DNA from: Hormoscilla sp. GUM202
GTDB lineage: Bacteria; Cyanobacteriota; Cyanobacteriia; Cyanobacteriales; Desertifilaceae
Length of the DNA: 64,000 bases
Direction: 5' to 3'
Assembly: GCA_005518205.2 (NCBI GenBank)
Contig: RFFC02000003.1
Coordinates: forward strand, 154,248 to 218,247
The position numbers and the translations under genes are program-made. Each line of letters opens with the position of its first letter. The stretch's first letter is position 1. Below, piece by piece: positions 6,328-32,287 of the stretch. Below the pieces are notes generated by a model. It was not told the origin of the DNA and ran no database searches. It saw only the letters and a list, made by a program, of their open reading frames with translations.

Positions 6328-6484
6328 AAGCACTAAAGTGCTTACTACAAACCCGCAAGCACTTTAGTGCTTACTACGAACCCGCAAGCACTTTAGTGCT
6401 TACTACGAACCCGCAAGCACTTTAGTGCTTACTACGAACCCGCAAGCACTTTAGTGCTTACTACGAACCCGCAAGCACTTTAGT
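6328..6484. repeat. 29-bp palindromic tandem repeat, five copies plus a partial
   Basis: The unit is AAGCACTTTAGTGCTT followed by ACTACGAACCCGC, so each copy has a perfect hairpin (AAGCACT/AGTGCTT). Five copies run head to tail with no spacers, and a truncated copy runs straight into the CYP51 fragment at 6485. Single diverged copies occur near 20196-20230 and around 58465. It is not a CRISPR array. Confidence 0.88.
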
Positions 6485-6805
6485 GGGCTGGGAATGGTTT
6501 CACCTGCCGTATCCCACCGATTGCCAGACTGTTTCCATTTTCCTAACCGCTATGACCCCGATCGCTTTACTCCCGAACGGGCAGAAGACCGCAAATCTCC
6601 CTATACACTCATCGGTTTTGGTGGCGGCAGACATCGTTGCATCGGTCAAGCATTTGCTTACCAACAGGTTAAGGTAATTTGGACTGTGTTGCTGCGGCAG
6701 TTTGAGCTGGAATTAGTGCATCAAAACTATGAACCAGATTACAGCACCTTTGTTGTCGGTCCCCGCCAACCTTGCTTAATACGGTATAGACGTAAATATA
6801 AACCA
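6485..6805 (+). pseudogene. Inverted partial copy of the CYP51 3' end
   Basis: The plus-strand translation from here reproduces the last 106 or so residues of the CYP51 protein encoded at 9492-10856 (minus strand), including the haem motif FGGGRHRCIGQAF. Only two amino-acid differences are visible, both near the start (A to G, C to S). Similarity starts at 6485, next to the hairpin array, and stops at 6805, where a truncated group II intron begins. It has no start codon context and lacks the first three quarters of the enzyme, so it is a recent duplication in opposite orientation. Confidence 0.92.
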
Positions 6806-8360: not shown

Positions 8361-9476
8361 CTACTTTGAACAGGTCTTAGCCAAGTGTTCTTCCCACTTA
8401 CGAATCGTTAGTAACTGGAACAAATGCACTGCTGGGTTCAGCTCAATGATGGGTGCATTGAAGTGAGTCTCATACCCCTGTTGTTCTGCTTCGACTGCAA
8501 TCCCATCTTGGCTTAGAAGTGGCTTAATCAAAAGTGGATTAGCAATTTTAAGGACGAGAGTCATCAGCCATTGGGGAATTCGTACTTGTGTAAAGGGGAT
8601 TTTGAGTGCATCGAAATAGAATAAAAAAAAGGTGCGAGTCGTTCGTTCGTCAATCGGTAAAATAAAGCACCAATGTTTGATTTTGCTGTCTGTATTTGAC
8701 CATTGGTAGGGATACTCATAACAAAGTTTCATGGAATTGGTATTAACCCGTTTGCGGTCAACAAATAGCCCAGAAACTTTACCCGTCCCAACTTTGGTGT
8801 CGTAACTGACGAAAACCCTATCTCCCTGTTCCTCGCACTTGGTCAACTTGGCATCAGTGAAGGGGCGATACTGGCGATGCAGATAAGCGTGGGTAAAATC
8901 ACTGACATTATCAATAATCATCGAGTGGTGCGCTTTCCAAGTAAAATCAAGTGGTACGCAGGCCCAACGGTCTTTTCCTTCTAGATCGGGGATATCAGGA
9001 ATCTGTCTCTTGTCAGCTAATGTAGAGTCACCTGGGAAAATCCAAATCAGCCCGTAGCGGACTTTCACCGGATAGATACCGATCTTACAGACTGGCATGG
9101 GTTTATCAAAAAGATCGTGCGGAATATCAACAACTTTTCCTTCTTGATTGTAACCCCAGCCATGATAACAACAGACCAGGCGATCGCCCTCTACTTGACC
9201 TAAAGAAAGTTTCAGTTGACGGTGGGCACAGCGGTTTTTTAAGGCTACTAACTGACCATTTTGTCCGCGATACAGCGCAATGGAAGTCTTCCAAAACTTC
9301 ACCTCAATTACCTGTCCTGGCTTAAGGGCACGGTCATACTCAACGGGGTACCAGTAATCTGGATTCATTCCCGCTGCACGCACTTTTTGGCGGCGATTTT
9401 TCGCCTCACTAAATGAGGGGGGACGACCTTGCGGTGATGTAGATACTTGCTGGTGATTCTCTGTCAATGTACTCAT
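8361..9476 (-). CDS. Rieske oxygenase, candidate sterol C-4 demethylase (SdmA-like)
   Basis: This 371-residue protein has an N-terminal Rieske [2Fe-2S] motif (C83-x-H85 and C102-x2-H105 in RCAHR...CCYHGW). It also has a catalytic mononuclear iron site (N190, D193, H196, H200 in NVSDFTHAYLH). The start ATG 9476 lies 15 bases after the CYP51 stop, so the two are co-transcribed. Rieske oxygenases in bacterial sterol clusters (SdmA of Methylococcus) oxidise a C-4 methyl group in three steps, and the partner reductase SdmB then decarboxylates. The neighbouring SDR at 10905-11909 fits that partner. The assignment to C-4 demethylation rests on context. Another position such as C-7 is possible. The family is well supported, the substrate less so. 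Confidence 0.85.
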   Translation of the reverse strand: MSTLTENHQQVSTSPQGRPPSFSEAKNRRQKVRAAGMNPDYWYPVEYDRALKPGQVIEVKFWKTSIALYRGQNGQLVALKNRCAHRQLKLSLGQVEGDRLVCCYHGWGYNQEGKVVDIPHDLFDKPMPVCKIGIYPVKVRYGLIWIFPGDSTLADKRQIPDIPDLEGKDRWACVPLDFTWKAHHSMIIDNVSDFTHAYLHRQYRPFTDAKLTKCEEQGDRVFVSYDTKVGTGKVSGLFVDRKRVNTNSMKLCYEYPYQWSNTDSKIKHWCFILPIDERTTRTFFLFYFDALKIPFTQVRIPQWLMTLVLKIANPLLIKPLLSQDGIAVEAEQQGYETHFNAPIIELNPAVHLFQLLTIRKWEEHLAKTCSK

Positions 9477-9491
9477 ATTTGATTATTAAAA

Positions 9492-10856
9492 TTAATCTGG
9501 TTTATATTTACGTCTATACCGTATTAAGCAAGGTTGGCGGGGACCGACAACAAAGGTGCTGTAATCTGGTTCATAGTTTTGATGCACTAATTCCAGCTCA
9601 AACTGCCGCAGCAACACAGTCCAAATTACCTTAACCTGTTGGTAAGCAAATGCTTGACCGATGCAACGATGTCTGCCGCCACCAAAACCGATGAGTGTAT
9701 AGGGAGATTTGCGGTCTTCTGCCCGTTCGGGAGTAAAGCGATCGGGGTCATAGCGGTTAGGAAAATGGAAACAGTCTGGCAATCGGTGGCATACGGCAGG
9801 TGAAACCATTGCCAGCCCCCCTGCCCGAACTTGATAACCATTATATTCAAAGTCACGCAATATTTTCCGCATCAACATGATTAAAGGCGGTCGCAATCGT
9901 TCTGCTTCTTTAATCGATCGCTCCAATACTACCAGTTGCCGCAACCCCTCAAGAGAAAAGGTTTCCCTAGGACCGAAAACGGCTTGCTGTTCGGCCATAA
10001 TCCCTGGTAGATATTGCGGATGCTGCAACAGTAAAATTCCCGTCCAGGCAGCCAACACCGCACTGGTATGCTGACCGGCAAAGAGTAGAGTCAGCAATAA
10101 ACCTGTAATATTATCTTCAGATAAAGCCGTGCCATCGGCATAACGAGCAGTCATCAAGGCTTGCAAAAAATCTTCCCCCTCATTTCCTTCGGCTCTTCGA
10201 TTAGCGATAATTGGCGAAATTAGTTCCACCATCCGCACGCGAGCTTTGTCCCGTCGTCGAAAAGAAGGTAAAGGTAAATAGGGTTGAAAAAAAGCTAATA
10301 GATTAATGCCGCCTTCTAAATCATGATATAATTGAGAGAATTCTGTGGTGAGGTGCTGTCGAAATTCATGGCCAATTAGGCAACGACTGGCAATAAACAC
10401 CGTTAATTCATTCATCGCCGCGAGTAAGTCTACTTCTCCTGACTCTCCCCAAGTCTCAAAATAGGCTTTTGCTTCTGTGGCCATAAATCCAGCATAGGCT
10501 TGCATCCGTTCTTCTCGCAGGGCCGGAAAGACAAACCCAAGCTGTTCGCTCATTCTATCGGGGGTCGTGTCATAGGCAATCCCTTTACCAAAAATCGGTA
10601 CCATAAATTGATACGCCTCTTTCTGACTCAACTGGTCGTCAGGGGCGCGAAAAAAGGCTTCGTTCGCTTTCGGTCCCGTTAATAACGTAACCTGAGAACC
10701 TGCTAATAAAAATGAGAAAATTTCTCCAAATTTCTCCTGTCCTCGTTGCAGAAAATTAATTGGATTACGTTGTAACTCTAAAGCGTATCCTAAATAAGGC
10801 AACCCTCCAGGCATCATCGGAGGTGTTTTCTTTTCAGAAATTGTACTGGTTGTCAT
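9492..10856 (-). CDS. cyp51: Sterol 14-alpha-demethylase cytochrome P450 (CYP51)
   Basis: This 454-residue P450 has a eukaryote-like CYP51 signature along its length. There is a proline-rich N-terminus, a B' region (VPIFGKGIAYD), PLPSFRRRDKAR at about 195-206, the oxygen-binding I helix FAGQHTSA (259-266), K-helix ExxR within EAERLRPP, PDRF, and the haem loop FGGGRHRCIG with cysteine 398. It has no membrane anchor. CYP51 removes the 14-alpha methyl group of lanosterol-type sterols as formate, leaving a delta-14 double bond, which the ERG24-type enzyme at 16269 could reduce. I take ATG 10856 as start. An in-frame TTG at 10871 is possible. Spacing is 48 bases from the SDR gene upstream and 15 bases to the Rieske gene downstream. 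A 321-bp inverted copy of its 3' end is at 6485-6805. Confidence 0.95.
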   Translation of the reverse strand: MTTSTISEKKTPPMMPGGLPYLGYALELQRNPINFLQRGQEKFGEIFSFLLAGSQVTLLTGPKANEAFFRAPDDQLSQKEAYQFMVPIFGKGIAYDTTPDRMSEQLGFVFPALREERMQAYAGFMATEAKAYFETWGESGEVDLLAAMNELTVFIASRCLIGHEFRQHLTTEFSQLYHDLEGGINLLAFFQPYLPLPSFRRRDKARVRMVELISPIIANRRAEGNEGEDFLQALMTARYADGTALSEDNITGLLLTLLFAGQHTSAVLAAWTGILLLQHPQYLPGIMAEQQAVFGPRETFSLEGLRQLVVLERSIKEAERLRPPLIMLMRKILRDFEYNGYQVRAGGLAMVSPAVCHRLPDCFHFPNRYDPDRFTPERAEDRKSPYTLIGFGGGRHRCIGQAFAYQQVKVIWTVLLRQFELELVHQNYEPDYSTFVVGPRQPCLIRYRRKYKPD

Positions 10857-10904
10857 GGTTCTTAATTTCAATGTTCTTTGGGGGGCAATTTAAATAAATC
10901 TATT

Positions 10905-11909
10905 TTATTTAGAGGCAATTAAACCTCTGCGGAGAAAGTCATCATAAGCGGATTGAATGCTGGCTTTAATGCTGGTTGGTTGATAGCCGAGTTCGTTTTT
11001 GGCTTTGCTAATATCTGCACGGCGGTGCATTCGCAGGATGCGAACCGCACCAGAAGTAAAACGTCTGGGTACATTGGGGAAAAAGCGGGGTAAAACAAAA
11101 TCGGCGACTTCCGCAATGCCTGACATAATTGGCCCAGGAATTCTTATAGATGGCCGATCGCGTCCTGTCACCTCCTCAAATATATCCATTAACTCATCAA
11201 CCGTGAGAAATTGGCTACTAAAGATATACTTTTGTCCCGGTCTTCCTTTGGACATCGCCAAAATGTGACCTTCCACAATATCCCTAGCAGCAACAAACTC
11301 AAATCCCCCAGGGACATAAGCCAACAGTTTACCATTGGCAAAATCTAAAAGTGTTCGCCCCATGCGGGAAGGTTTGTAATCATGGGGACCTATAATAGCA
11401 CAGGAGACTGCCACAACCACATTCAGACCATTGGCAAAAGCTTTGAGGCACTCATGCTCGACAAAGGTTTTGGTAAAGCCGTAAGGTAGGTGGGGTGAGA
11501 AGGGATAAAAAGGGACTGTTTCATCACTGGGTTTTTCTGGGTTATGACCCACTGCACTGAAAGAGCCAGAAACCACAACTTTAGAAACTCCTGCTTCTAG
11601 GGCAGCTTGGAGAATATGGAGGGTTCCTAAGACATTACAGTCGTAAATCTCTCGCTTCAGCAAGGGATCTCCATCTAGGGTGGAGACCTTGGCGGCACAG
11701 TGGTAAATGCGATCGCATCCTCTGACTGCTGCTTTCATGCCAGTAAAGTCGCGCAGGTCGCCGTAAACCCTTTCGACATCCAAACCCTCCACAGCAGTGT
11801 TATTGCTACCCTCCCGCAGAAGCACGCGAACGCTTTGTCCGTCGTCTAGCAGACGTCGCACCAGATTGGCACCTAAGTGACCGGAAGCACCTGTAACTAT
11901 AATTTTCAT
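10905..11909 (-). CDS. 3beta-HSD-like extended SDR, candidate sterol C-4 decarboxylase (SdmB-like)
   Basis: This 334-residue protein has the Rossmann motif GASGHLG (residues 7-13), an active-site Y143-x3-K147 (PYGFTK), and the overall length of 3beta-hydroxysteroid dehydrogenase/dihydroflavonol reductase relatives. In known bacterial sterol producers an NAD(P)-dependent enzyme of this class (SdmB) oxidises C-3 and decarboxylates the C-4 carboxylate made by the Rieske oxygenase SdmA. In eukaryotes NSDHL/ERG26 does the same. The gene is in line with CYP51 and the Rieske oxygenase. Hopanoid-associated HpnA is a related family, but no hopanoid gene is visible here. Family assignment is secure; the reaction is inferred from context. 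Confidence 0.85.
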   Translation of the reverse strand: MKIIVTGASGHLGANLVRRLLDDGQSVRVLLREGSNNTAVEGLDVERVYGDLRDFTGMKAAVRGCDRIYHCAAKVSTLDGDPLLKREIYDCNVLGTLHILQAALEAGVSKVVVSGSFSAVGHNPEKPSDETVPFYPFSPHLPYGFTKTFVEHECLKAFANGLNVVVAVSCAIIGPHDYKPSRMGRTLLDFANGKLLAYVPGGFEFVAARDIVEGHILAMSKGRPGQKYIFSSQFLTVDELMDIFEEVTGRDRPSIRIPGPIMSGIAEVADFVLPRFFPNVPRRFTSGAVRILRMHRRADISKAKNELGYQPTSIKASIQSAYDDFLRRGLIASK

Positions 11910-11983
11910 TATTTGTTAAGTTTTGTCTAAAATTAACAGATGTAAATTTTAAGCCCCGGCGATCGCCCAATTGAGGACATCTT

Positions 11984-12257
11984 TTACAAGTTTGAAAGAC
12001 CCAAAACGAAGAGCCAAGCCAAATCCCAAATAGGCGTTTTCGCTACTTGTAGAAACATATTACCGGCCATTAGACGGGAACCAATTTTTTGCTGAATTAA
12101 TTTCGTATAGGGTGAGAGATTTTCATTGGCTGTCCGAAACAGAACTAAATCTTGACCAAAGTAATGTAGGGGCTTTACTTTACCCGGAGGGAGTTCACCG
12201 CTGTAACCCACTCGAACCACTCGGAAAAGCTGAAAAGGGAAAGCGTGTAGTCATGAC
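11984..12257 (-). pseudogene. Remnant of a second Rieske oxygenase
   Basis: The minus strand reads RVGYSGELPPGKVKPLHYFG and then QDLVLFRT, the opening of a Rieske oxygenase of the KshA/cholesterol 7-desaturase-like type, distinct from the gene at 8361. A start-like MTTRFPFSAFPS just upstream (ATG at about 12254) is in another frame, separated by a small indel. After FRT the frame continues for about 45 residues but without the Rieske cysteines and histidines, so the core has been deleted. It occupies the ERG2 to SDR interval, suggesting that the cluster once had an additional sterol oxygenase. Confidence 0.6.
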
Positions 12258-12847
12258 ATCTCCTTTGAATCAGAAAATCGAGATTTTTTAGAAGTTGATT
12301 CCCAAAGATTTTTCAGTAACAATTTTCCATAAACTCCGAAGGTGCAAGCAATGGTTTTCCAGTCTAAGGTACTCATAAATGAGTCAGCTAGACCAAAAGG
12401 AAGCATAGAAGGAATAAAACCTCTAGCGTATTCTAGTAACCAAGCTTTTTCTGGAATACATACCGCTTCACTTTGAAACTTGCCAAGAGAATATTTGTCT
12501 CCAGCTTTATGTACAATGCGTTCAAAAGGACGTTCTTCTTTGAAAACCCAGATTTCTCCATCTATAACAGCTTCGTATATTTCTGTCAAATATCTGCCTG
12601 AATGTCCTTTAGTGCCAATGGAAGAGCCACAAATCAAAACATATTCTGTCAAAGACGCATGGAGAACAGCTATACCATACATAGCGCCTCCAGCATTATT
12701 AAACATCCATTGGATTTTTTCGTTAATTTTTCCAGGATACTCTTGTTGTAACCTTACTCTCAAGGTTTCAAACATTTGTTCATAAGGCAAGCCACGACAT
12801 GAGTTAACAATTTCGTGTAACTTATCGGGATCAAAAACGTACTTCAT
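12251..12847 (-). CDS. Sterol C-8 isomerase, ERG2/sigma-1 receptor family
   Basis: The 198-residue protein (start ATG 12847, directly at the conserved YVFDP motif) matches ERG2 and the sigma-1 receptor through its core: FNNAGGAM (49-56), LHASLTEYVL (62-71), GHSGRY (81-86) and LEYARGFIPSMLPFG (138-152), then ADSFMSTLD. E139 corresponds to the conserved glutamate of sigma-1. The other ligand-site acid falls at E92. The usual N-terminal membrane helix is absent. ERG2 moves the sterol double bond from delta-8 to delta-7 after demethylation. The gene follows the cyclase by about 70 bases on the same strand. An upstream in-frame start at 12877 would add 10 residues. Homology is unmistakable; isomerase rather than a binding-only role is inferred from the pathway. 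Confidence 0.92.
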   Translation of the reverse strand: MKYVFDPDKLHEIVNSCRGLPYEQMFETLRVRLQQEYPGKINEKIQWMFNNAGGAMYGIAVLHASLTEYVLICGSSIGTKGHSGRYLTEIYEAVIDGEIWVFKEERPFERIVHKAGDKYSLGKFQSEAVCIPEKAWLLEYARGFIPSMLPFGLADSFMSTLDWKTIACTFGVYGKLLLKNLWESTSKKSRFSDSKEMS

Positions 12848-12917
12848 TACTACTTTGATTTGGTTGTTGACTAGCAAAATTTAATTTTTATATAACATCT
12901 AAGAGATTGAGCAAATC

Positions 12918-14933
12918 TTAAATATTAAGTTTTTTCTGTCGAAGTGACTCATATAAAGCCAATGCCCACACGGGGAAGTAAGCGCGATAGAGCGTATAAT
13001 CCAATAACGCAGTATGGAAAAAGACCCCACTCCAATCCTGTTTTGCCCAACCACCATTTTCTAACTGCATATCAATGAGAAAATTTGCACCTCTGGTAAT
13101 TTCTGGCCAATGATTTGCTTCTGCTTTTAATAAAGCGATCATGGCCCAAGCGGTTTGAGTCACTTGACTTTCAGTATGTTCGACATATTCACCTGACAAA
13201 CAGCCTTGAAAATGCTCTCCCCATCCGCCATCGGGCCTTTGCTTACTAACCAACCAATGACAAGCTTTGCGAATAGCTGGGTCATTAGCAGTATTTGTTG
13301 CTGCGACTAAGCCTTGAACTGCAAACATCGTACCATATATAAAATTCACTCCCCAAAAACCCAACCACGAATCATCTAGCTTTTGCTGTTTTCGTAACCA
13401 TAAGCCACCCCGTTGCATGGCCCTGTCAATTTCATCCCCCATCATTTCCGGGTAACGAATCTGAAATTCCCTGAGTGCCATTATACAGGATGCCGTACAT
13501 TCAATATAGGAATGCTCCGTCATTGAGTTAGCAAACATTTCGGCTGGGTTCATCCACTCTAAGGTTGAGCGAATCTTACGACTTTCGTAACTCCCAAAAC
13601 CACCATCGGCGTTTTGACAGCGAAGGATAAATTTCACAGAATCGAGCAAGCTACAATTGGCAGTGACTTCAGGCGGGGCATCTAATAAGGCAAGGAGTGC
13701 TTCTGCGGTACAATCACTTACAGGCCACCCATGCCAAACGCCAGCAAAGCAAAATCCCCCTTTAGGGTCGATGCGATGAAAATCCTCAATATTGGGAAAA
13801 GTCGTGCGAATTTGCTGAGTGGCAAGAAATTGCTGTGCTTGGAGCAAACTATCTGAGACATCTACATGAGGACTGGTTGCTTGCAAAGCTTGAATGGCAA
13901 AACCCGTATCCCAAGTGCTACTGCGAGCCCCTGTAATTCTCAGTCCAGATTTTTCATCTTGCCAGATCCAGCCTTCAAAGCGTTCTAATGCTTTGTGTAG
14001 GTCGGCATCATTGGGGTCATGTAACCAGAGGGCAATGATATTCAGCAAACCACTCACTGGAGACAGACTGGTATAGTCAGTGGTCTGCAACTCAAAGCGA
14101 ATGCAGTCTATCATTTGCGCGATCGCTTCTTGTCGCCAATCTTTATTATGCCACCGTTCGTAAAGGTTACTGAGTTTGTAGATCGCTTGCAGCACAGGCG
14201 TGGAAGGATGATAAACTTCCTCTGGCCTCAACATCGATCGAGCTGCATTAAAATTTACCTCCTGGTAATCCTCTATATACAACTCCGATCGCAATGTTTC
14301 AATCAATGGCGTGACTGAAACCTGAAACTTTCGCCCATAAATCAAGCCCATGGGCATATAAATGAGTCGCGTGTGGCAGTAAAAATTCCCTGGATGAGCA
14401 GGTATCCATTGAGGCAGCAACCACGCTTCCGGCAAAACTGGATTCACCCCACACCAATCATACAGATTCAGCATCGCTAACCAGAATTTACCCCAGGTTG
14501 GAATAGCCAGCACGCCTCCTTGGTCCCGGATAAATTGGAGTGCAGGTGATAAAAGTGGGTCTTCTTTTTGCACGCCTAATAGACGCGCAGCAACATATAC
14601 AAGGGTTGTGACAAATAAGTAAGGCTGGGATTTGTCATGCAATCCCCATAAATCACAGGAAAGGCGAGTGGTATTGAATTGCTGTAAAATAGCCTGCCGA
14701 CGTTCTGGGGAAATGGGTGTTTGAGTAATGTGACACATTAGCACATACTGCGCTGGCAACATGGGACACCACACAACCTCTCCTTCCCACGAACCATCAG
14801 CTTGTTGTAGGGAAACCAAATACCTCACAGAGCGTTCTAAGGCAGGAGTAACATCGATCGCTTGTTCTCTTAAACTAGATGTTGGTTTCTGGTTCAACGA
14901 TAATCGATCGTGAATTTTGTGAATTTTTGTCAT
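12918..14933 (-). CDS. osc: Oxidosqualene cyclase (lanosterol/cycloartenol synthase type)
   Basis: This 671-residue triterpene cyclase carries the oxidosqualene-cyclase catalytic motif DCTAE (D407-E411, in HGWPVSDCTAE), not the DxDD of squalene-hopene cyclases. It also has the OSC-type YCHTRLIYMPM at about 185-195 and repeated QW motifs (QQADGSW, CQNADGGFG, KQRPDGGWGEHF, LENGGWA). The C-terminus SGVFFHTALLDYTLYR and YFPVWAL matches the end of eukaryotic lanosterol synthases. It protonates and folds 2,3-oxidosqualene into a tetracyclic sterol. The start ATG 14933 overlaps the stop of the epoxidase gene (ATGA) and is preceded by AAGGAGGGAGT, a strong ribosome site, so translation is coupled. 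Whether lanosterol or cycloartenol is made cannot be read by eye. Confidence 0.95.
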   Translation of the reverse strand: MTKIHKIHDRLSLNQKPTSSLREQAIDVTPALERSVRYLVSLQQADGSWEGEVVWCPMLPAQYVLMCHITQTPISPERRQAILQQFNTTRLSCDLWGLHDKSQPYLFVTTLVYVAARLLGVQKEDPLLSPALQFIRDQGGVLAIPTWGKFWLAMLNLYDWCGVNPVLPEAWLLPQWIPAHPGNFYCHTRLIYMPMGLIYGRKFQVSVTPLIETLRSELYIEDYQEVNFNAARSMLRPEEVYHPSTPVLQAIYKLSNLYERWHNKDWRQEAIAQMIDCIRFELQTTDYTSLSPVSGLLNIIALWLHDPNDADLHKALERFEGWIWQDEKSGLRITGARSSTWDTGFAIQALQATSPHVDVSDSLLQAQQFLATQQIRTTFPNIEDFHRIDPKGGFCFAGVWHGWPVSDCTAEALLALLDAPPEVTANCSLLDSVKFILRCQNADGGFGSYESRKIRSTLEWMNPAEMFANSMTEHSYIECTASCIMALREFQIRYPEMMGDEIDRAMQRGGLWLRKQQKLDDSWLGFWGVNFIYGTMFAVQGLVAATNTANDPAIRKACHWLVSKQRPDGGWGEHFQGCLSGEYVEHTESQVTQTAWAMIALLKAEANHWPEITRGANFLIDMQLENGGWAKQDWSGVFFHTALLDYTLYRAYFPVWALALYESLRQKKLNI

Positions 14934-16255
14934 ACTCCCTCCTTGAGACTCATGCTGCCTCTGGGATTCTTCCAAAAACGCGAAACAGCAATTGTCATGG
15001 GTAATCTCAGCCATTGAGCAAAAGCGAGCGAAACCCGAAGCAAATTGCGCCACTGTCCCGTTGCTATATTGTTCTCGAATACAGATTTTACCGCGATCGC
15101 TAATCCTTTGATAAATGAACCAGTAAAATGGAAAATATTGGTTTGCGCTCCCGATAATAAGTGCATTGTGCGAAAGCATTCCGTTGGATCTTCTCGCCAC
15201 ATTTGATAGATAGCTCTACGGATAGCGACAGCACTTTCATCATCGCGGCAAAATACTTGATAAAGTGTAGTTGCCAGCATTTCCGGCACATAAGTTCCGA
15301 AATTGCGCTGATTTTGGTAGTCTTTAAAGCTGTGACTTTCCACAAGCCGTTCTGCATCCATAAAACCAACGGTCATTCCTGTTGCGGTCATGGGATGAAA
15401 ATATCCAGTTGCATCCCCAACCAGAGATAAACCCGGACGACCGTAATAAGTGCGAGAGCTATGCTGGTTTGCCACCCAGACCACTCGATTTTCTGCCAAA
15501 GCCTGACGAAATGCTTCTAGTAATTCCGAAGGGATGATGGAACGATAGGCATCCCATAAATTAGCAAGTTTTTTGGGGACATTCAGTGGCACATCAAGGC
15601 ACATACGAACTTTATTTTCCCCAATGCGATAGATCAATGCAGGTCCAACTCCTCCGAGCAATACATGACCAAAGCCTTCAAAAGGTAACTTAACATTTTC
15701 TAATAACACTCCTGCCATATAAGAAATGGGTTGAGGGTTATGAGAAATTCCCATTGCTTTGCGAGCGATGGAAGCGCGACCATCTGCCCCGACAATGCGA
15801 TCGGCCACAACCGTGAAAGGATCGCCTTGTTGAAAAGATTCAACGCTTAATTGCTGCCCTTGAATTCGAGTGACACGAGCGTGAGAGATAAAATCTATTT
15901 CTTTACGATCGCTCGCGGCTTCTCGCAGCGTAGATACAATAGAATTGTGTTCGCAACTTAATCCTTTCGCACCACTAGGATATTCAAGTCGAATGGGTTT
16001 ACTCCCATCATCTGGAAAAACAACAAAGCCAAGACCCGTATCATAATTCACTGTATCGGGAGAAAGACTCACACCTAGACGTTCTAAAACTTCTAAGGCT
16101 GAGGGATGCAACCATTCTCCGGCTAGTCGTTTTTTATTGTTAGGTTGTGCCTCCAACAACGTGACTTTTGCACCACGACGCGCAAACGCGAGGGCAGTCA
16201 CGCAACCGACTGGACCAGCACCAATTACCGCAACATCAGGGGAGACAATTTTCAT
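14930..16255 (-). CDS. sqmo: FAD-dependent monooxygenase, squalene epoxidase-like
   Basis: This 441-residue flavoprotein shows the dinucleotide motif GAGPVG (12-17), the acid LLEAQ at the end of strand 2, the internal GADGRAS (156-162) and the second FAD motif LVGDATGYFHPMTATGMT (about 278-295). The last strongly resembles the GDA-x-n-HPLTGGGMT of squalene monooxygenases. The C-terminal region is hydrophobic and may lie on the membrane. It is encoded between the sterol reductase and the cyclase, with a 4-base overlap to the cyclase, so its natural role would be conversion of squalene to 2,3-oxidosqualene. Start ATG 16255 was chosen because it precedes the beta strand of the Rossmann fold. An ATG at 16279 adds eight residues. 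Geranylgeranyl-reductase-like or halogenase-like flavoproteins are more remote alternatives. Confidence 0.87.
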   Translation of the reverse strand: MKIVSPDVAVIGAGPVGCVTALAFARRGAKVTLLEAQPNNKKRLAGEWLHPSALEVLERLGVSLSPDTVNYDTGLGFVVFPDDGSKPIRLEYPSGAKGLSCEHNSIVSTLREAASDRKEIDFISHARVTRIQGQQLSVESFQQGDPFTVVADRIVGADGRASIARKAMGISHNPQPISYMAGVLLENVKLPFEGFGHVLLGGVGPALIYRIGENKVRMCLDVPLNVPKKLANLWDAYRSIIPSELLEAFRQALAENRVVWVANQHSSRTYYGRPGLSLVGDATGYFHPMTATGMTVGFMDAERLVESHSFKDYQNQRNFGTYVPEMLATTLYQVFCRDDESAVAIRRAIYQMWREDPTECFRTMHLLSGAQTNIFHFTGSFIKGLAIAVKSVFENNIATGQWRNLLRVSLAFAQWLRLPMTIAVSRFWKNPRGSMSLKEGV

Positions 16256-16268
16256 CTTTAATATACAT

Positions 16269-17375
16269 TTAATATACAAACGGTATCATGCGAAATTTTA
16301 CTTTTGTGCAGTAATCTTGCCACAACTCACCATATTTTGCTTGGCAACGCTGTTCGTCACGCCATGCTCTGTGACATAAAAGTCCCAATAACCAGAGAGG
16401 GAGTAAATAGGGAATCATTGAGTGAAACCCAGAAGTTAATGCGATCGAAAAATAAACTAATATTTCACCTGTATAATTTAGCTTACGACCAATTCCCCAC
16501 CAACCCGATACTAAAAGTTTTCCGGCTAAAGTTTGCGCTGGTTGGCCCCAAATGTTTGCCTGGGGGTTTTTCTTAAAGCGGTGCTTCTGGGCATTGGATC
16601 CACGAAATATTGTCAAACCCACGAGGTACAGCAAAGCGATCGCTATTGCACCGGTTACTGGTATGGGTTCTATCGCATCCACCAAATGCCAGCCGATAAT
16701 ACTGTAAAAGAAAGGAACCAAAACTATGTCACCCCATATTAACATAAACCCTAACTTCTCCGCAATAATATCCCAGGTAGAAAGCATGAACTCTTCATAG
16801 TAATAATGAGTCGCAAGGTACAACCACCAAAACACCTGGAACATCCACATTTGTATGGTAATTTCCCCGTACTTCTGATATTGGAAATAAGCAAATGCTG
16901 CATTGATCAGCCCCAAACCAATTAATGAAGGTTGGTATGCGAACATTTTTAAATCAACTCCCAGCCAAGTTGGGTTTAGTTCCATGCCCAACCATAAATC
17001 ACTGAATATTTTACCCAAGGTTTGCGGTTGATGATTGACCCCCTGTGTTCTTTGTCCCTTTACATACAAAATGCCAGTCCACGTGAAAGCAAATAGGTTA
17101 GCGACGATGAACAAATACCAAAAATCGGTAATTATGGGTGCAAGTGTCAGATGGAATACCAAGGTAGATATCACTACAACCAAAGTCGTTGCCATAAATA
17201 GCAGCAAACCGTTGAGCTTGTATGATTTCCCTGTCCCGTCTGGTTGCAAACAGCCTGTGTATTGTTTCCCTGGCAAGAAGATTGTACCAATAAACATCAC
17301 AGTTACGAAGCCTACAAACATTAGTGAGGCATAACTCAATCCAACTGGAGGAATTAAATTTATCAAGTGATTCAT
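16269..17375 (-). CDS. ERG4/ERG24-family sterol reductase (probable delta-14 reductase)
   Basis: This 368-residue integral membrane protein has about ten hydrophobic segments. It carries both family signatures: GMELNPTWLGVDLKMF (130-145) and LLVSGWWGIGRKLNYTG (287-303). It also has FRGSNAQKHRFKKNP (257-271), the NADPH-binding end KYGELWQDYC and C-terminal RMIPFVY. The family includes fungal ERG24 (C-14), ERG4 (C-24) and plant/animal 7-dehydrosterol reductases. Because CYP51 leaves a delta-14 bond, C-14 reduction is the most economical role; delta-7 or C-24 reduction remains possible. It lies 17 bases after the squalene synthase stop and just before the epoxidase. It should reside in the membrane. 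Confidence 0.92.
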   Translation of the reverse strand: MNHLINLIPPVGLSYASLMFVGFVTVMFIGTIFLPGKQYTGCLQPDGTGKSYKLNGLLLFMATTLVVVISTLVFHLTLAPIITDFWYLFIVANLFAFTWTGILYVKGQRTQGVNHQPQTLGKIFSDLWLGMELNPTWLGVDLKMFAYQPSLIGLGLINAAFAYFQYQKYGEITIQMWMFQVFWWLYLATHYYYEEFMLSTWDIIAEKLGFMLIWGDIVLVPFFYSIIGWHLVDAIEPIPVTGAIAIALLYLVGLTIFRGSNAQKHRFKKNPQANIWGQPAQTLAGKLLVSGWWGIGRKLNYTGEILVYFSIALTSGFHSMIPYLLPLWLLGLLCHRAWRDEQRCQAKYGELWQDYCTKVKFRMIPFVY

Positions 17376-17392
17376 AGATGTGGCGATCGCGT

Positions 17393-18214
17393 TTACTTTC
17401 TACTCATTACCTGTTCAATTAGGTTCATCACTTCACTCCGGCTCAGTTTAGGTTTTCCAAGGCTTAAAACATCTAATGTGGCATGGGCCAATGTCAAGGG
17501 AATGATACAAAAATTTAACGCGGGACCTTTAGGCAGAGATTTAGTATAATCGTCGGCTAGAGAAAGATTCCGACGTGCATACATTTGCATATTCTCTTTC
17601 GTCCAGCCATTAGGAAAGAAATCGACTCCCCGTTCTAAGTCTTCGCTGTTATTGCGGAGAATATTCACAGCTTGCAGACCCCGACCAAATCCAATTGCTT
17701 GGGAACGATTAGTTGCCGTACCGTCGTACCAGGCCCATAAGTCGGATAACAGCAATCCTACAGCACCCGCTACGCTGAATGTATAGCAATCTAAATCGGT
17801 CTGGGTATCAATTTCCCAACCCGTAATTGCCCAGTGAGCCATCCGATCCGCCATCGCTGCGGTGGCATCCCATATCCGTGGACCCACAGTTTCTGGTGCT
17901 AATAAAGCCCATTCATCAATCCGAATTGTCACTTCTGGTAACAGTTGAACATGAGTTTTAAATAGCCTGGAAAACTGCTCAATAGCCGTTTCTCTAGAAG
18001 CAATTGATTGCAATTTTAAACTTATTTCTTTTAATAGCTGAGACTTGGATAAATTATCCATACTGGGATGATCTTCTATTTCATCAATAGCACGCATACA
18101 CAAGTATGCAGAAGCAACTGCTTTTTGCAGATCGTCAGGCAAACCGCTAATGGGAACGTAAAATGTACGACTTGTTTCTTCTAGAATTTTCATAGCTTCT
18201 CTACATGTATTCAT
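17393..18214 (-). CDS. Squalene/phytoene synthase-family prenyltransferase (probable squalene synthase)
   Basis: This is a 273-residue protein from ATG 18214. It has the first acidic motif DEIED (44-48, in RAIDEIEDHP) and the second in ILRNNSEDLERGVDFFP (185-201), the two magnesium-diphosphate sites of head-to-head prenyl synthases. The size fits bacterial single-domain members. It is first in the cluster, so condensation of two farnesyl diphosphates to squalene is the likely job. The open frame extends upstream to 18412, but that part is derived from a dispersed repeat (about 18270-18400) and has no family resemblance, hence the internal start. Phytoene synthase is the main alternative, but the sterol genes immediately downstream favour squalene. 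Confidence 0.85.
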   Translation of the reverse strand: MNTCREAMKILEETSRTFYVPISGLPDDLQKAVASAYLCMRAIDEIEDHPSMDNLSKSQLLKEISLKLQSIASRETAIEQFSRLFKTHVQLLPEVTIRIDEWALLAPETVGPRIWDATAAMADRMAHWAITGWEIDTQTDLDCYTFSVAGAVGLLLSDLWAWYDGTATNRSQAIGFGRGLQAVNILRNNSEDLERGVDFFPNGWTKENMQMYARRNLSLADDYTKSLPKGPALNFCIIPLTLAHATLDVLSLGKPKLSRSEVMNLIEQVMSRK

Positions 18215-20170: not shown

Positions 20171-20271
20171 ACAACATTACTAGCTACGAAAAATGCCACG
20201 AACCCGCAAGCACATTAATGCTTACTACGAACTATTTATCAGAGCATAGTTGATTAGGAGACGCAGAAGAA

Positions 20272-24112: not shown

Positions 24113-26500
24113 GTGTGATTCGTTTAGTGTAAATCACCGGTGAATAACCGATGAGGGACCATTACCAGGACACCATTAGTCCTGAGAACTTATAGATGAT
24201 ACCGGTGAAAGCCCGGTCCTCCAGGTGCAGGAGTGACAGCACCATCCCTCCGGTAGCGATGGCATCAATCCGGAAAGCGGGAAGGAAAGACGCCCTGACT
24301 GGTAGCCTAAACTGGTCAACGTCGAGCAAGTGCTCATGGGTAATAAGATGAAGACTTGATAAATGTCGTTATTCTAAACCAGTGCAATAAGGCTGACACA
24401 CTGGCCCAAAAGGGAAAGGATAGCGGTCGCTGACAGATTGCACGCCGATCAGCAAGCACTGACAATAAACCCGGCAAATAGAGTCGCCCTAAAAGCACAA
24501 CCAATCGTCTATAGGAACGAGGTAACCTAACTAGACCTCTCTACCACCGGTCGATAACGGTAGAGTAACCACCACAGGTGAAACATCTGCTTACATTTGG
24601 CAGGGAATAGTTGGGAAAGATTGAGTGGAGAAGCAAGCCTGGCTGTAATGGACAGGATAAGCCAACGCCACCACGGTTTCGTAAAAACAGTGAAACAAGT
24701 AGTAGTGAATATGTCACGGAACATCGCAAATAAGCGAATGTATGACTGGAAGGCAGTCCCCTGGCGTAAGCTGGAGAGGATAGTTTTTAAGCTACAAAAG
24801 CGGATCTATAGAGCGGCCCAAAATGGCAATAAACGCAAAGTTCGCATGCTCCAAGGATTGTTGACAAGATCCTGGTCGGCCAAAATGATCGCAGTACGAC
24901 AGGTAACAAGGGAAAAAGACGGCAGGAATAGATGGAGTAATAGCCATCAAACCCTCTGAACGTCAACCAATGGTAAGGTCAATGAAAATCACCGGCGACA
25001 TGAAAGTAAAACCTACTCGCAGAGTATGGATACCTAAACCGGGGAGAAACGAAAAAAGACCACTAGGAATACCAACGATACACGACCGCGCATTACAAGG
25101 AGTAGTCAAGATGGCATTAGAACCCGAATGGGAAGCTACCTTTGAACCAAACTCCTATGGATTCCGACCAGGACGCGGATGTCACGACGCGATTCAGGCG
25201 ATATTCAACAGTATCAAACACTCACCTAAATGGGTATTAGATGCAGACATCGCCAAATGTTTTGATAAAATCAACCACCAATACCTACTGAACAAACTGA
25301 ATACCACATCACGAATCCGCAGAATAATTCGGGGATGGCTAAAAGCCGGCGTGATGGATCGGGGAGTCCTCCAAAGGACGGAAGCAGGAACGCCACAAGG
25401 CGGAGTAATATCACCTCTTCTCGCTAATATAGCCCTCCACGGGCTAGAAGAAAAAGCAAAAGAACAGGTAAAGCAAACCATAAATCAAAGGAGCCAACTA
25501 ACTATAGTCAGGTATGCCGATGATTTCGTAATAATCCACCCCGATCGAAACACAATAGACAGAATAAAGGCAGTAGTGGAAGAATGGCTGGCCAAGATTG
25601 GACTCGAATTAAAAGCCGAAAAAACGCGGATATCCCACACACTTCATGAAAAAAACCCTGGATTCGACTTTCTAGGATTCAATATACGACAATATGAAGT
25701 AGGGAAACACCGCAGCGGGAAAGACACCCATGGGAAAACTCTTGGCTTCAAAACATTAATCAAACCAAGTAACAAGTCCATAGAGGTTCAAAAAACCAAA
25801 ATACGTGAAGTAGTCAAAAGACACAGGGCAGCCCCAACAGCGGCTCTAATAAACAAACTGAACCCAATCATACAGGGATGGAGTAACTACTTCAAAACAG
25901 AAGCCAGCTCAAAGACGTTCAAAGATATGGACGACTACCTCTGGAACCTACTATGGCGCAGGGCGAGACGCCGACACCCGAGAAAGAACCGTCAATGGAT
26001 CGCAAGAAAATATTGGGAAACTCAGGGAGGGAACAATTGGGTATTCTCCGGCAAGACAAAAGACGGCACAACAATCCACCTACTAGATCGCAGTAGTACA
26101 AAAATAGTACGCCACGTAAAGGTAAAAGGGACGGCGAGCCCAATGGACGGAAATCTGGTGTACTGGAGCAAAAGACTAAGAAAAAGCCCAGACGTAAGCA
26201 CAAGAGTAATTAACCTGCTAAAACGTCAAAACGGCAAATGTGAACATTGTGGCCTAACCTTCAGGGAAGGAGATAAATGGGAAGTGGATCACATCCAACC
26301 AATCTCTCTGGGGGGCAAAGATTGGTACACAAACCTACAATTACTACACGATTATTGCCACGACATTAAATCTGCCAAAGATGGCAGCAGAACGGGAAGC
26401 ACCTGGACACAGGATATCGAAACTGAGGAGCCGGATGAGGTGAAAGTCTCACGTCCGGTTTTGAAGACGAGTCGGGAGGGTGACCTCCTGGCTTAGTTTA
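24113..26500 (+). mobile_element. Group II intron with RT-maturase (frameshifted)
   Basis: The ribozyme begins GTGTGATTCG at 24113. Domain I landmarks include GGCATCAATCCGG, GGTAGCCTAAAC and CTGGCCCAAAAGGGAAAGG. The protein gene occupies domain IV. Domain V is GAGCCGGATGAGGTGAAAGT followed by CTCACGTCCGGTT at about 26428-26463. Domain VI is GTCGGGAGG...CCTCCTGGC ending near 26500. It lies between the divergent ABC1 kinase and recN genes, so no coding exon is evident. The 3' boundary is approximate. Confidence 0.88.
24711..26496 (+). pseudogene. ltrA: Group II intron-encoded reverse transcriptase/maturase/HNH, frameshifted
   Basis: The N-terminal part (MSRNIANKRMYDWKAVPW onwards) is in one frame to about 24920. 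The rest, beginning TAGIDGVIAIKPSERQ, is in another frame. A short deletion or shift after VTRE (near 24915) separates them. The second part has RT motifs (PLGIPTIHDRALQ, SYGFRPGRGCHDAI), catalytic RYADDFVII, thumb/maturase X (IIQGWSNYFK) and a C-terminal HNH endonuclease (CEHCGLTF, EVDHIQP, LLHDYCHDIK). As read, a full protein needs a frameshift, so it is either inactive or relies on another copy. Such enzymes splice and mobilise the host intron and could serve the ORF-less introns nearby. Confidence 0.88.
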
Positions 26501-26578
26501 ATAACTTTGCCCACCCTAGGACTCTTTCTCGTTCCGGACATGGGTGGGCGTCTCTAAGCACGACTGACCAGTCGCCGT

Positions 26579-30162: not shown

Positions 30163-32287
30163 TTGGATTTATCGCGGATACCAGCCCAACCAAAACCGGG
30201 TTTGCTGAACGTATTGATCGAAATCACAGCCGGAAGCAAAAATAAGTACGAATATGATAAGGATATGCAAGTGCGATTCGTTATAGTATAACGTGGTCAA
30301 ACACGGAATAATAGCCTAGGAAACTAGGAACTCTGGTCATCATGGGGGTTAAATTCCCCTCCCCCAGGTGCGGGGGTGACACCGGTCCTCAGTGCTGCGG
30401 GGCAACATCACCGTGGTGCCGAGCGAGGACTTAAATGTAGGAGAGCTGCTAGTCTAAGGGGCGACTCCGCTAGGAAAGAGGCTTATGGATAGAACAAGCG
30501 AATCTCTGTAAGTATCGTCATCTTAAACCAGCGAAAAGACTGATTACGCTGGCCCAAAATGGGAAAGTAGTTCGCGTGTCAATGTTTTGCATTCATTGAT
30601 ATCGTACCCGAAATAACTACCGGTATACAGGAGAAACCTAAAAGCCTCGCGAAATGATACCAGGGAACGAAGTAACCCCTCGTGTGCTGTCCATTTGGAC
30701 CAGTCAGATGTGAAGCGCAAGCCACGAGTGGGAGAGATGGCTCGAGAAGCTAATGCCTAGGGTAATGCCTATGGATATGCAGACGCGGGTCGGTGATAGT
30801 TGGAAGTCTTGGGTAAAGCCGTCTGAATACGTCATAGGCCCATCACTACGGTGGTTCCGAATGAATGAAGGGGTCAAATCTCATGAGACGAGGGACAACG
30901 GGAGTAATCCCTAGTAATCCTACCCATGATTTGGGCCAACTACCCAGTAGCCGTGTGCGGTGAAAGTCGCATGCACGGTTCCGAAAGGGAGGGTTGAGGA
31001 GTGATTCTCAGCTCGACCCCGACTGCCTTGATCCTGGACCGGGTGCTTTATGCTTCGGTACAATATCCTTACGATTGTGCGAGACGTTAGGGTGTAAACA
31101 GAACAATGGCTTATAACAGAGCTCTGGCCTGTAACAGCCCAACCTGGTTCCATCAGCCAGTAAACTATGTAGTCATTGAAGGTGCAAATCCTTCCCTCCC
31201 GATACAGGAGGTACACCGGTCCTAACTGCTGTGGAGTGACATCACCGGCGGTGGAGAGCAAGGACTTAAATGCAAGCAGCCTGGTAGCCTAAACTGGGTG
31301 CGCTGCTAGGAAAGATACCCAAGGGTAAAACAAGTGAACCTGTGTAAGCCTCGTTATGATAACCCAGCGGAATAAGGCTAAATACGCTGGCCCAAAAGGG
31401 AAAGGTAGTTGCGAATAGTTTTAGTCGTTAACTATTCTGTATTGCAAATGCTCCCGGGGTATAGCAGGGCCCTAAAGGTATCTAGTATTGATTACATGGA
31501 ACGTCATAACCTCTAATGAGCTATCCCTGGTATGTCTATCGGCGGATAAGTTAGATGATAAGCGCAAAGCCATTAGGGGAGGGATGTCCTAAGAAGCTAA
31601 TGCCTGGGGTAATACCTAGGATATGCTGACGTAGGACGGTGATAATAGGAAACAGTTGGAACAAGTAGTCCTGTTTAATATCACGGAACCCAGGTCTTTC
31701 ATTAGGGCTGAGGGTAAACTGCCTCGGATAAATGAGTGGTAAGAATGGTTAGCAGACGCCATGCCACAACCAGAAAGGGACAAACGAACAGACTGCAAGG
31801 CCAAACAGGGGTAACCCTGGAGTAAGCTGCCAATGACAATGGCCTATTACCCAGTAGCCGGATGCGATGAAAGTCGCAAGTCCGGTTCCGAATGGGAGGG
31901 TTGAGAGGCGACTCTCAGCTCGACCCCGACCACGGCTTTGTCCCCAATACCCTAGCCGACGATGGCGACCCCCTCGATGGTATGGTGATGATGGATCAGC
32001 CCACTTTCCCGGGTTGCGTGATAGCGGCGCGGCCAATAGGAATGTTGGAAATGATTGACGGGGGAGATCGGGATGAAAAAATTCTCTGCGTGCCCGACGA
32101 TGACCCGCGCTATGCTGAGGTAAAATCCCTCCAAGATGTGGCACCCCATCGGTTGGATGAAATTGCCGAATTTTTCAGAACTTACAAAAATTTAGAGAAG
32201 AAAGTTACTGAAATCCTCGGCTGGAAAGATGTATCGGAGGTGATGCCTCTGGTGGAAAAATGTATTAACGCGGGAAAAAAACAGTAA
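30163..32287 (+). CDS. ppa: Inorganic pyrophosphatase, gene split by two group II introns
   Basis: Three exons join to a 171-residue family I pyrophosphatase. Exon 1 is 30163-30270, exon 2 is 31025-31076 and exon 3 is 31932-32287. The product begins [20 protein letters not shown]. The joins read [18 protein letters not shown] and VQYPYD(Y)GFVPNTL. Exon 3 supplies [13 protein letters not shown] and the C-terminal helix. The active-site DGDPLD and Y.YDYGF motifs are complete only after splicing. The start is TTG 30163 behind AAGGAG with 7-base spacing; an upstream ATG at 30067 is less likely. The enzyme hydrolyses pyrophosphate and is essential, so both introns must be spliced unless another ppa exists. 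Exons are otherwise undamaged. Confidence 0.94.
30271..31024 (+). mobile_element. ORF-less group II intron 1 in ppa (754 nt)
   Basis: It starts GTGCGATTCG after codon CAA. Domain V is AGCCGTGTGCGGTGAAAGTC and on to CACGGTTCC at about 30950-30982. Domain VI is GGGTTGAGGAGTGATTCTCA and then GCTCGACCC. The 3' end is placed at 31024 because this restores the ppa frame. No protein is encoded; splicing would need a maturase in trans. Confidence 0.92.
31077..31931 (+). mobile_element. ORF-less group II intron 2 in ppa (855 nt)
   Basis: It starts GTGCGAGACG inside the tyrosine codon of the YPYDYGF motif. Domain V is AGCCGGATGCGATGAAAGTC with CAAGTCCGGTTCC at about 31857-31890. Domain VI is GGGTTGAGAGGCGACTCTCA and then GCTCGACCC. 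The end at 31931 restores the reading frame. Exon 2 between the two introns is only 52 bases. The intron belongs to the same class as the copies at 33482 and 50339. Confidence 0.92.

What the first reader, a model, noticed from the sequence alone, without database searches (positions are those of the whole stretch)
8361..18214. A near-complete sterol biosynthesis gene cluster in a cyanobacterium
Eight same-strand genes give squalene synthase-like, ERG4/ERG24 reductase, squalene epoxidase-like, oxidosqualene cyclase (DCTAE), ERG2-type isomerase, SdmB-like SDR, CYP51 and SdmA-like Rieske oxygenase. Gaps are mostly 15-70 bases and one junction is an ATGA overlap. The cluster has no spliceosomal introns and lies between parB/psbA/gltX and an fmdB remnant with HIP1 sites, so it belongs to the cyanobacterium rather than to eukaryotic contamination. 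Known bacterial sterol makers (Methylococcus, Gemmata, Stigmatella) carry subsets of these steps. Most cyanobacteria make hopanoids via squalene-hopene cyclase. The predicted product is a 14-demethylated, C-4 demethylated delta-7 type sterol.
Basis: partly seen in the sequence, partly recalled or inferred. Interest (0 to 1): 0.97.

Follow-up and report, generated by a model that had tools for sequence, protein, structure and literature searches.

The report
Trimmed sterol cluster in sponge cyanobacterium
A cyanobacterium whose closest sequenced relatives live in sponges carries eight adjacent intact genes predicted to make sterols, lipids usually linked to animals, plants and fungi, and remnants of two further genes indicate that a longer version was cut down, so the pathway would likely stop at an unfinished cholesterol precursor.

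Summary
Window 8361-18214 has eight intact minus-strand genes: squalene synthase, C-14 sterol reductase, squalene epoxidase, oxidosqualene cyclase, ERG2-type isomerase, SdmB-like, CYP51, SdmA-like. The genome is Hormoscilla, a sponge-symbiont cyanobacterium, almost certainly MAG GUM202_hs. All eight genes recur beside parB in three of three Hormoscilla genomes (the window's included). They hold this genome's only squalene-synthase candidate besides a presumed CrtB, and its only squalene/oxidosqualene cyclase.

The novelty claim needs correcting: a 21-kb sterol cluster in the cyanobacterium Calothrix NIES-4105 was published in 2023, and its cyclase and SdmAB worked in E. coli. Sponge-symbiont sterol clusters are also in print.

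Both are intact at this position in Rivularia and Calothrix rhizosoleniae. Three of three Hormoscilla genomes share the scar; no close intact copy was found in them.

Predicted product: cholesta-7,24-dienol. Nothing here shows expression or sterol production, and recent constraint on some genes is weak.

The parts
17393..18214 (-). Squalene synthase (SQS_PSY family, cyanobacterial type); the genome's only candidate besides a presumed CrtB
   Evidence: PF00494 82.8 bits on the longer ORF; 2 PF00494 hits in the genome; the other, on C50, scores 263 bits and is taken as CrtB; 64-95% identity among the 120 listed of 4656 homologues; second motif NxxxD in 119 of 120
16269..17375 (-). Sterol C-14 reductase (ERG4/ERG24 family)
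   Evidence: 254 bits; 4QUV delta(14)-sterol reductase 230.6 bits; only family member in the genome
14930..16255 (-). Squalene epoxidase (FAD monooxygenase, SE domain); fused to the OSC in Rivularia and Calothrix rhizosoleniae
   Evidence: searches (PF08491 101 bits; squalene monooxygenase 6C6N best), (fusion in relatives)
12918..14933 (-). Oxidosqualene cyclase, predicted lanosterol-forming; starts in an ATGA overlap behind AAGGAGGGAGT
   Evidence: TIGR01787 547 bits over cut-off; TIGR03463 717 bits under its cut-off of 851; 1W6K 492 bits; residue pattern; tree; only PF13243 gene of the genome; junction
12251..12847 (-). ERG2-type sterol C-8 isomerase
   Evidence: (PF04622 193 bits), (named cyanobacterial homologues 63-73% identical)
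12131..12254 (-). Remnant: N-terminal ~43 residues of a deleted KshA-like Rieske oxygenase (frameshifted here)
   Evidence: 13 residues at 92% and 39 at 69% identity to L026:12752-13756; KshA_C and Rieske domains of the intact gene
11952..12124 (-). Remnant: C-terminal ~56 residues of a deleted geranylgeranyl-reductase-family protein (Bsr-type C-24 sterol reductase candidate)
   Evidence: 81-82% identity to L026:14320-15414; TIGR02032 171.7 bits, cut-off 158.8, for the intact gene
10905..11909 (-). SdmB-like SDR reductase/decarboxylase for C-4 demethylation
   Evidence: NF052578 342 bits, cut-off 600; TGxxGxxG and YxxxK seen in the translation, their meaning recalled
9492..10856 (-). CYP51 sterol 14alpha-demethylase
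   Evidence: 442 bits to a solved CYP51; GQHTS and FGGGRHRCIG seen in the translation, their meaning recalled
8361..9476 (-). SdmA-like Rieske 4-methylsterol oxygenase
   Evidence: NF052579 412.5 bits, cut-off 600; PF00355 76.6 bits
6485..6805 (+). Inverted duplicate of the CYP51 3' end (99.4% identical to 9498-9818); a gene piece
   Evidence: the same pair is present in L029

Best explanation
This is an eight-gene sterol cluster of the sponge-symbiont cyanobacterium Hormoscilla, predicted to turn farnesyl diphosphate into a 4-desmethyl, 14-demethylated C27 sterol and likely to stop at cholesta-7,24-dienol, because the gap between ERG2 and sdmB holds only remnants of a Rieske oxygenase gene and of a predicted C-24 reductase gene, as a deletion would leave. 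Inferred route: FPP to squalene (SQS), to 2,3-oxidosqualene (SQE), to lanosterol (OSC), 14-demethylation (CYP51), delta-14 reduction (ERG24-type), removal of the two C-4 methyls (SdmA Rieske oxygenase with SdmB), and delta-8 to delta-7 shift (ERG2-type isomerase). Redox partners would come from the cell's general ferredoxin system, since none is in the cluster. Shown by sequence: the genes, their order, the shared scar, and that the searches found no other squalene synthase candidate than a presumed CrtB and no other squalene or oxidosqualene cyclase gene in the assembly. Inferred: every catalytic step, expression, and the product.
For: Eight intact ORFs with family-level assignments. Same eight genes in the same order in SP12CHS1 and GM7CHS1pb, the latter with 1-bp deletions in two of them. 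All beside parB or parB pieces in three genomes. OSC is the only PF13243 gene. The cluster SQS and one 263-bit homologue, taken as CrtB, are the only PF00494 genes. One ERG4_ERG24. At seven OSC positions 80 of 83 sequences (window included) agree, and the Calothrix NIES-4071 OSC has the same two motif segments; a Calothrix OSC made lanosterol and Calothrix SdmAB removed both C-4 methyls in E. coli (PMC10202945, passages). Scar: Rieske residues 1-43 followed directly by GGR residues 309-364. In G000-G002 all matches of 69-80% identity to either protein are these remnants; everything else is at most 52% over short pieces and 30-33% over the longest ones. The intact GGR scores above the GGR-family cut-off and is closer to GGRs in three Sandaracinaceae/Deltaproteobacteria OSC loci (180-203 bits) than to the four Hormoscilla GGR loci compared (60-75 bits). 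Bsr is a GGR-family C-24 reductase (PMC12004948, passages). Long-term constraint: dN/dS 0.07-0.19 for all eight genes against Rivularia.
Against: No expression or lipid data. SQS dN/dS is 0.75 and 1.05 against SP12 and GM7, and the GM7 comparison as a whole shows little constraint (18 synonymous, 41 nonsynonymous changes summed over the eight genes). CYP51 of SP12 is shortened to 433 residues and its SQS runs on to 279. GM7 has 1-bp deletions in OSC and SdmB and a stop near the end of ERG2 (after 193 of 198 residues); the deletions lie in or beside runs of C as expected for long-read error, but real decay is not excluded. SdmA, SdmB and the OSC (TIGR03463) and SQS (TIGR01559) matches fall below NCBI's curated cut-offs. 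Other GGRs, Rieske proteins and FA-hydroxylase-family proteins exist in the genome and could act on sterols; a DHCR24-type C-24 reductase was not searched for. Native Calothrix sterol data were called inconclusive by their authors.
Confidence: 0.72

Rival explanations
1. The cluster is a decaying relic: Hormoscilla inherited a longer sterol pathway, lost part of it by deletion, and the rest is drifting in the symbiont, making little or no sterol.
For: Deletion scar; SQS dN/dS 0.75-1.05 and weak overall constraint against GM7; truncated CYP51 in SP12; frameshifts in GM7 OSC and SdmB and an early stop in its ERG2; group II intron ends inside the operon in SP12 and GM7.
Against: All eight ORFs intact in the window; strong constraint on SdmB and CYP51 between window and SP12 (dN/dS 0.08 and 0.10, pooled 0.13) and on OSC (0.15); both intron ends lie between genes, not in them.
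Confidence: 0.18
2. The pathway makes a specialised steroid (for example a defensive sponge-associated polyhydroxysterol) rather than a membrane-type sterol, with tailoring enzymes elsewhere in the genome.
For: Related cyanobacterial clusters carry extra Rieske oxygenases, P450s and in one case a carbamoyltransferase; Dysidea herbacea is a source of polyhydroxy sterols by the title of a cited paper.
Against: The Rieske and EBP genes of those clusters are deleted here and no close copies were found in the genome (the EBP search rang in only 1 of 14 control genomes, under the cut-off). Tailoring P450s and carbamoyltransferases elsewhere in the genome were not searched for.
Confidence: 0.07
3. 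Assembly chimera or eukaryotic contamination.
For: The genome is a metagenome bin (2.7% contamination).
Against: Same cluster and parB neighbour in three bins from different sponge samples, one on a 1.3-Mb contig; the listed best OSC relatives that bear an organism name are all bacterial and the window OSC lies among rows whose named members are cyanobacteria (no eukaryotic OSC was in that tree); HIP1 sites at about window density; ATGA overlap and unbroken ORFs.
Confidence: 0.02

Closest known systems
Calothrix sp. NIES-4105 sterol cluster (Lee et al. 2023, PMC10202945)
   Same: Cyanobacterial cluster with OSC, SdmAB, CYP51, C-8 isomerase and oxidosqualene production; its OSC and SdmAB functioned in E. 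coli (passages and one section read).
   Different: 21 kb with several additional genes; the Hormoscilla cluster is 9.9 kb and lacks the Rieske-EBP-GGR block. Its sequence was not compared here directly; a NIES-4071 OSC is 67% identical.
Rivularia sp. MS3 and Calothrix rhizosoleniae SC01 clusters (L026, L025)
   Same: Same gene order as far as the stretches go (SQS is not in the L025 stretch) and 70-89% identical proteins.
   Different: SQE and OSC are one 1114/1115-residue protein; intact Rieske, EBP (EXPERA) and GGR genes lie where Hormoscilla has the scar.
Sponge-symbiont clusters of steroid genes (Ircinia, PMC9531527; SMT-bearing clusters, PMC10070321)
   Same: Bacterial CYP51, C-14 reductase and OSC clusters, and SdmAB-bearing clusters, in sponge symbionts (passages read).
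   Different: None of the passages read concerns Hormoscilla. Non-cyanobacterial loci fetched here by the genome scan mostly have a fused SQE-OSC, an ERG2 match in only two (L053, L055), and an OSC 51-57% identical.
Methylococcus capsulatus SdmAB/CYP51 pathway
   Same: SdmA, SdmB and CYP51 homologues.
   Different: In methanotrophs SdmAB removes one C-4 methyl, and an 8,14-Bsr gives 8(14)-sterols (PMC10202945 passages, PMC13277303 abstract and outline); here an ERG24-type reductase and an ERG2-type isomerase are present.

Membership tests
Bacterial SdmAB-type sterol biosynthesis cluster | Oxidosqualene cyclase with DCTAE and lanosterol-synthase-like residues | tested here: met
   VSDCTAE; TIGR01787 over cut-off, TIGR03463 the best hit but under its cut-off (717 of 851 bits); Val at the lanosterol/cycloartenol switch position, though a CAS-like His sits six residues before the Asp (the meaning of these positions is recalled)
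Bacterial SdmAB-type sterol biosynthesis cluster | SdmA Rieske oxygenase and SdmB SDR in one cluster | tested here: met
   best NCBIfam hits are the SdmA and SdmB models (412.5 and 342.4 bits), both under the 600-bit equivalog cut-offs, so homologues rather than certified equivalogs
Bacterial SdmAB-type sterol biosynthesis cluster | CYP51 | tested here: met
   the top 18 of the 60 listed solved-structure matches (448 in all) are CYP51 / sterol 14-demethylases, 318-442 bits
Bacterial SdmAB-type sterol biosynthesis cluster | Sterol made by the organism | not testable with these tools
   needs lipid analysis of purified cells
Cholesterol-type (C-24-saturated) bacterial sterol pathway | Bsr (GGR-family) C-24 reductase in the cluster or a close copy in the genome | tested here: not met
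   only a C-terminal remnant; other GGR matches at most 52% identical over short stretches and about 30% over the longest. A DHCR24-type reductase was not searched for.
Side-chain-alkylated sterol pathway | Sterol 24-C-methyltransferase (PF08498) | tested here: inconclusive
   0 of 3 Hormoscilla genomes, but the search rang in no control genome either
Hopanoid pathway | Squalene-hopene cyclase | tested here: not met
   one PF13243 gene in the window's genome, the OSC; 3 of 3 Hormoscilla genomes show only the OSC; 19 of the other 36 genomes show distant matches taken as SHC

The most novel reading that the evidence does not exclude
A photosynthetic sponge symbiont has trimmed a cholesterol-type pathway to end at a delta-24, delta-7 sterol that its animal host can finish with its own enzymes: a split sterol assembly line between a cyanobacterium and an animal, in which symbiont carbon enters host membranes as a sterol precursor. 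The cluster holds the genome's sole squalene synthase candidate and replaces hopanoids altogether.
Probability: 0.15. Interest if true: 0.85.

Novelty: new variant of a known kind. Interest (0 to 1): 0.6.

Why it matters
Sterols are used as fossil markers of eukaryotes, and sterol synthesis by cyanobacteria has been controversial, in part because several early reports were traced to fungal contamination (PMC10202945, passage). This is a compact cluster in a sponge symbiont in which no hopanoid cyclase was found, present in three genomes. Its scar gives a specific prediction: an unreduced delta-24 side chain. That makes the question of who makes the sponge's sterols testable by labelling light-grown sponge tissue and separating the trichomes.

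Tried and rejected
Eukaryotic contamination or chimera: rejected (see rivals). Idea that the SQS is disabled because its second Asp-rich motif reads NxxxD: rejected, since 119 of the 120 listed homologues share the N, all cyanobacterial where a source names an organism; one had no recognisable motif. Idea that GM7 proves decay: not accepted, since the 1-bp losses lie in or beside C runs in what its name and contig names suggest is a PacBio assembly. Programmed frameshift making one SQE-OSC protein: no slippery site seen by eye at the junction; a Shine-Dalgarno-like AAGGAGG before the OSC ATG fits reinitiation; not tested further. Polarity of SQE-OSC fusion or fission: left open, since split and fused forms both occur among close relatives. 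Promoter and terminator scans were at chance level (19 found against 19.5 expected; 11 against 10.3). Viral-contig scan: no match. parB in the wider family: 4 of 10 genomes matched, three of them Hormoscilla; the fourth (G004, 48% identity) was not read, so no empty site was examined. The OSC comparison with GM7 is inflated past the frameshift, so one search is used for it. Motif strings for enzymes other than SQS and OSC were copied from the window itself, so finding them there tests nothing; their meaning is recalled. No structure prediction was run.

Counts and rows dropped: one search kept 80 of 246 relatives. Searches list 120 of 2099, 4656 and 769 hits. The tree (quick method, no bootstrap) used 93 rows: window, 32 of 33 chosen loci (GM7 OSC left out as too short), 54 of 56 chosen database proteins (two left out for coverage), 6 SHC rows; no eukaryotic row; 1 of 388 sampled genomes of the class had an OSC at E<=1e-100, and that one is the window's own. 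SQE and OSC fused in 66 of 83 sequences, separate in 14, no SQE found in 2, opposite strand in 1.
Full report
OBSERVATION. The minus strand from 18214 down to 8361 carries eight ORFs, matched to Pfam, NCBIfam and solved structures as squalene synthase, ERG4/ERG24 sterol reductase (closest solved relative a delta-14 reductase), squalene epoxidase, oxidosqualene cyclase, ERG2/sigma-1-receptor-type isomerase, SdmB-like SDR, CYP51 and SdmA-like Rieske oxygenase. Several NCBIfam matches are best hits but under their curated cut-offs (SdmA 413 of 600, SdmB 342 of 600, OSC TIGR03463 717 of 851, SQS TIGR01559 80 of 287). Start positions were chosen by in-frame ATG and agreement with the Rivularia orthologues. 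SQE ends and OSC begins in an ATGA overlap behind AAGGAGGGAGT, in the window and in both other Hormoscilla genomes. The meaning of individual residues is recalled from the families, not tested here.

ORGANISM. The window lies in a 6,869,623-base, 70-contig genome. A scan of named genomes found the OSC at 100% in Hormoscilla sp. SP12CHS1 and at 95% in Hormoscilla sp. GM7CHS1pb. Schorn et al. 2019 report GUM202_hs with 70 scaffolds averaging 98,137 bp, that is 6,869,590 bases (PMC6520454, passages), so the window is almost certainly that genome; this is inference from size. In the main text of that paper 'squalene' does not occur and 'sterol' occurs once, in a cited title on polyhydroxy sterols of Dysidea herbacea. 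In the main text of PMC7313196 neither word occurs. Ten held papers contain both 'Hormoscilla' and 'sterol' (listing only); I opened only PMC6520454 of these. Supplements could not be read. So I found no report of this cluster, within those searches.

GENOME CONTEXT. The OSC is the only PF13243 gene in the genome, the cluster SQS is the only PF00494 gene besides one taken as CrtB by its 263-bit score, and there is one ERG4_ERG24 gene. With the OSC as query, 3 of 3 Hormoscilla genomes gave OSC hits only, while 19 of the 36 other relatives gave distant hits taken as squalene-hopene cyclases. Thus squalene made by this organism has, as far as the assembly goes, one likely source and one cyclase. 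The genome is 95.85% complete, so absence is not proof. In an even draw of 388 genomes of the class, only the window's own had such an OSC at E<=1e-100.

THE SCAR. The gap between ERG2 and SdmB is 341 bp against 13-70 bp for the other non-overlapping junctions. Window 12254-12131 matches residues 1-43 of a Rieske/KshA_C oxygenase, and window 12124-11952 matches residues 309-364 of a GGR-family protein. In Rivularia MS3 (L026) the order at this point is ERG2, Rieske, EBP, GGR, SdmB; in Calothrix rhizosoleniae (L025) ERG2, a Rieske homologue, Cupin_8, EBP, GGR, SdmB. The block missing relative to Rivularia is about 2.36 kb. SP12 has the same junction (98% over 426 bp) with the two remnants in one 96-codon frame; in the window the Rieske part is frameshifted; in GM7 a further stretch is missing. 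In the three genomes all matches of 69-80% identity to the two proteins are these pieces; other matches reach 52% over short pieces and 30-33% over the longest. No EBP-family match was found (its control rang in 1 of 14 genomes, under the cut-off). The intact GGR passes the GGR-family cut-off (171.7 against 158.8 bits) and is closer to GGRs in three Sandaracinaceae/Deltaproteobacteria OSC loci than to the four Hormoscilla GGR loci compared. Bsr, the bacterial C-24 sterol reductase, belongs to this family and is reported from several cyanobacteria (PMC12004948, passages). That the deleted gene was a Bsr is therefore likely, not shown.

PREDICTED PATHWAY. SQS, SQE and OSC give lanosterol; CYP51 and the C-14 reductase remove the 14-methyl and reduce delta-14; SdmA and SdmB remove C-4 methyls; ERG2 shifts delta-8 to delta-7. 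Without the C-24 reductase the side-chain double bond should stay, giving cholesta-7,24-dienol. That Hormoscilla SdmAB removes both methyls is argued by analogy with Calothrix SdmAB (PMC10202945). FA-hydroxylase-family genes exist in all three genomes, but the same family rings in Synechococcus elongatus, and I did not assign a C-5 desaturase. No PF08498 methyltransferase was found, but that search had no positive control. DHCR24-type reductases were not searched for.

EVOLUTION. In a quick tree of 93 rows without eukaryotic sequences the window OSC sits in a starred set of 11 rows with Rivularia and C. rhizosoleniae, inside a larger group whose named members are cyanobacteria. SQE and OSC are fused in 66 of 83 sequences, including those two relatives, and separate in Hormoscilla. 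Against Rivularia all eight genes show dN/dS 0.07-0.19. Against SP12 the pooled value is 0.13, driven by SdmB and CYP51, which are far more divergent (dS 0.25 and 0.33) than OSC (0.01), as recombination would produce. Against GM7 constraint is weak (18 synonymous and 41 nonsynonymous changes summed over genes). Recent selection is thus ambiguous, and this is the main support for the relic rival.

PRIOR WORK. Cyanobacterial OSC genes: PMC4919349 (passages). Calothrix NIES-4105 cluster with working OSC and SdmAB, native sterols seen then lost and called inconclusive: PMC10202945 (passages and one section). Sponge-symbiont steroid clusters: PMC9531527, PMC10070321 (passages). Of PMC13277303 only abstract and outline were seen. 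The Hormoscilla cluster is therefore a member of a known kind, in a trimmed variant that I have not found described.

VERDICT. Observation confirmed; interpretation partly supported; new variant of a known kind; the testable novelty is the shared truncation in a sponge symbiont in which no hopanoid cyclase was found.

Noticed in passing
6485-6805 (+) and 9498-9818 (-): 321-nt inverted duplicate of the CYP51 3' end at 99.4% identity, also present in GM7 (L029). The last CYP51 codons differ between genomes: 433 residues in SP12, 455 in GM7, 454 here.
   Followed up: partly
L024 2460-2525 and L029 17346-17423: Group II intron ends (Rfam) lie between SQS and the C-14 reductase in SP12 and between CYP51 and SdmA in GM7, at different junctions of the same operon.
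   Followed up: partly
L024 SdmB and CYP51: Synonymous divergence from the window is 0.25-0.33 in SdmB and CYP51 but about 0.01 in OSC, pointing to recombination within the cluster.
   Followed up: partly
P0121 (database protein): A 279-residue squalene synthase named Hormoscilla sp. GM102CHS1, 95% identical to the window's, suggests a fourth Hormoscilla genome with at least this gene.
   Followed up: no
L022 (Planktothrix agardhii No.2A plasmid p2): A plasmid carries a sterol-like cluster with OSC, SQS, four annotated P450 genes, three Rieske proteins, an EBP-family protein and a carbamoyltransferase, beside an IS701-type element.
   Followed up: no
L031-L103: Fused SQE-OSC proteins are common in MAGs of many phyla (at least one from a sponge by its title, L041). 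A four-term paper search on such a fusion (20 of 38 papers listed, none opened) showed no obvious report.
   Followed up: partly
6328-6485 and 20198-20233: A 29-nt palindromic unit is repeated in tandem on one side of the cluster, with one diverged copy on the other side.
   Followed up: partly
26425-26502, 30946-31023, 31853-31930: Three group II intron ends (Rfam), the first at the end of a 508-residue reverse-transcriptase-like ORF.
   Followed up: no
42945-43928 and 43970-44953: Two transposase-like ORFs with the same 327-residue translation lie in tandem.
   Followed up: no
L029 3835-6582: parB appears in duplicated, partial copies in GM7 beside the sterol cluster.
   Followed up: no
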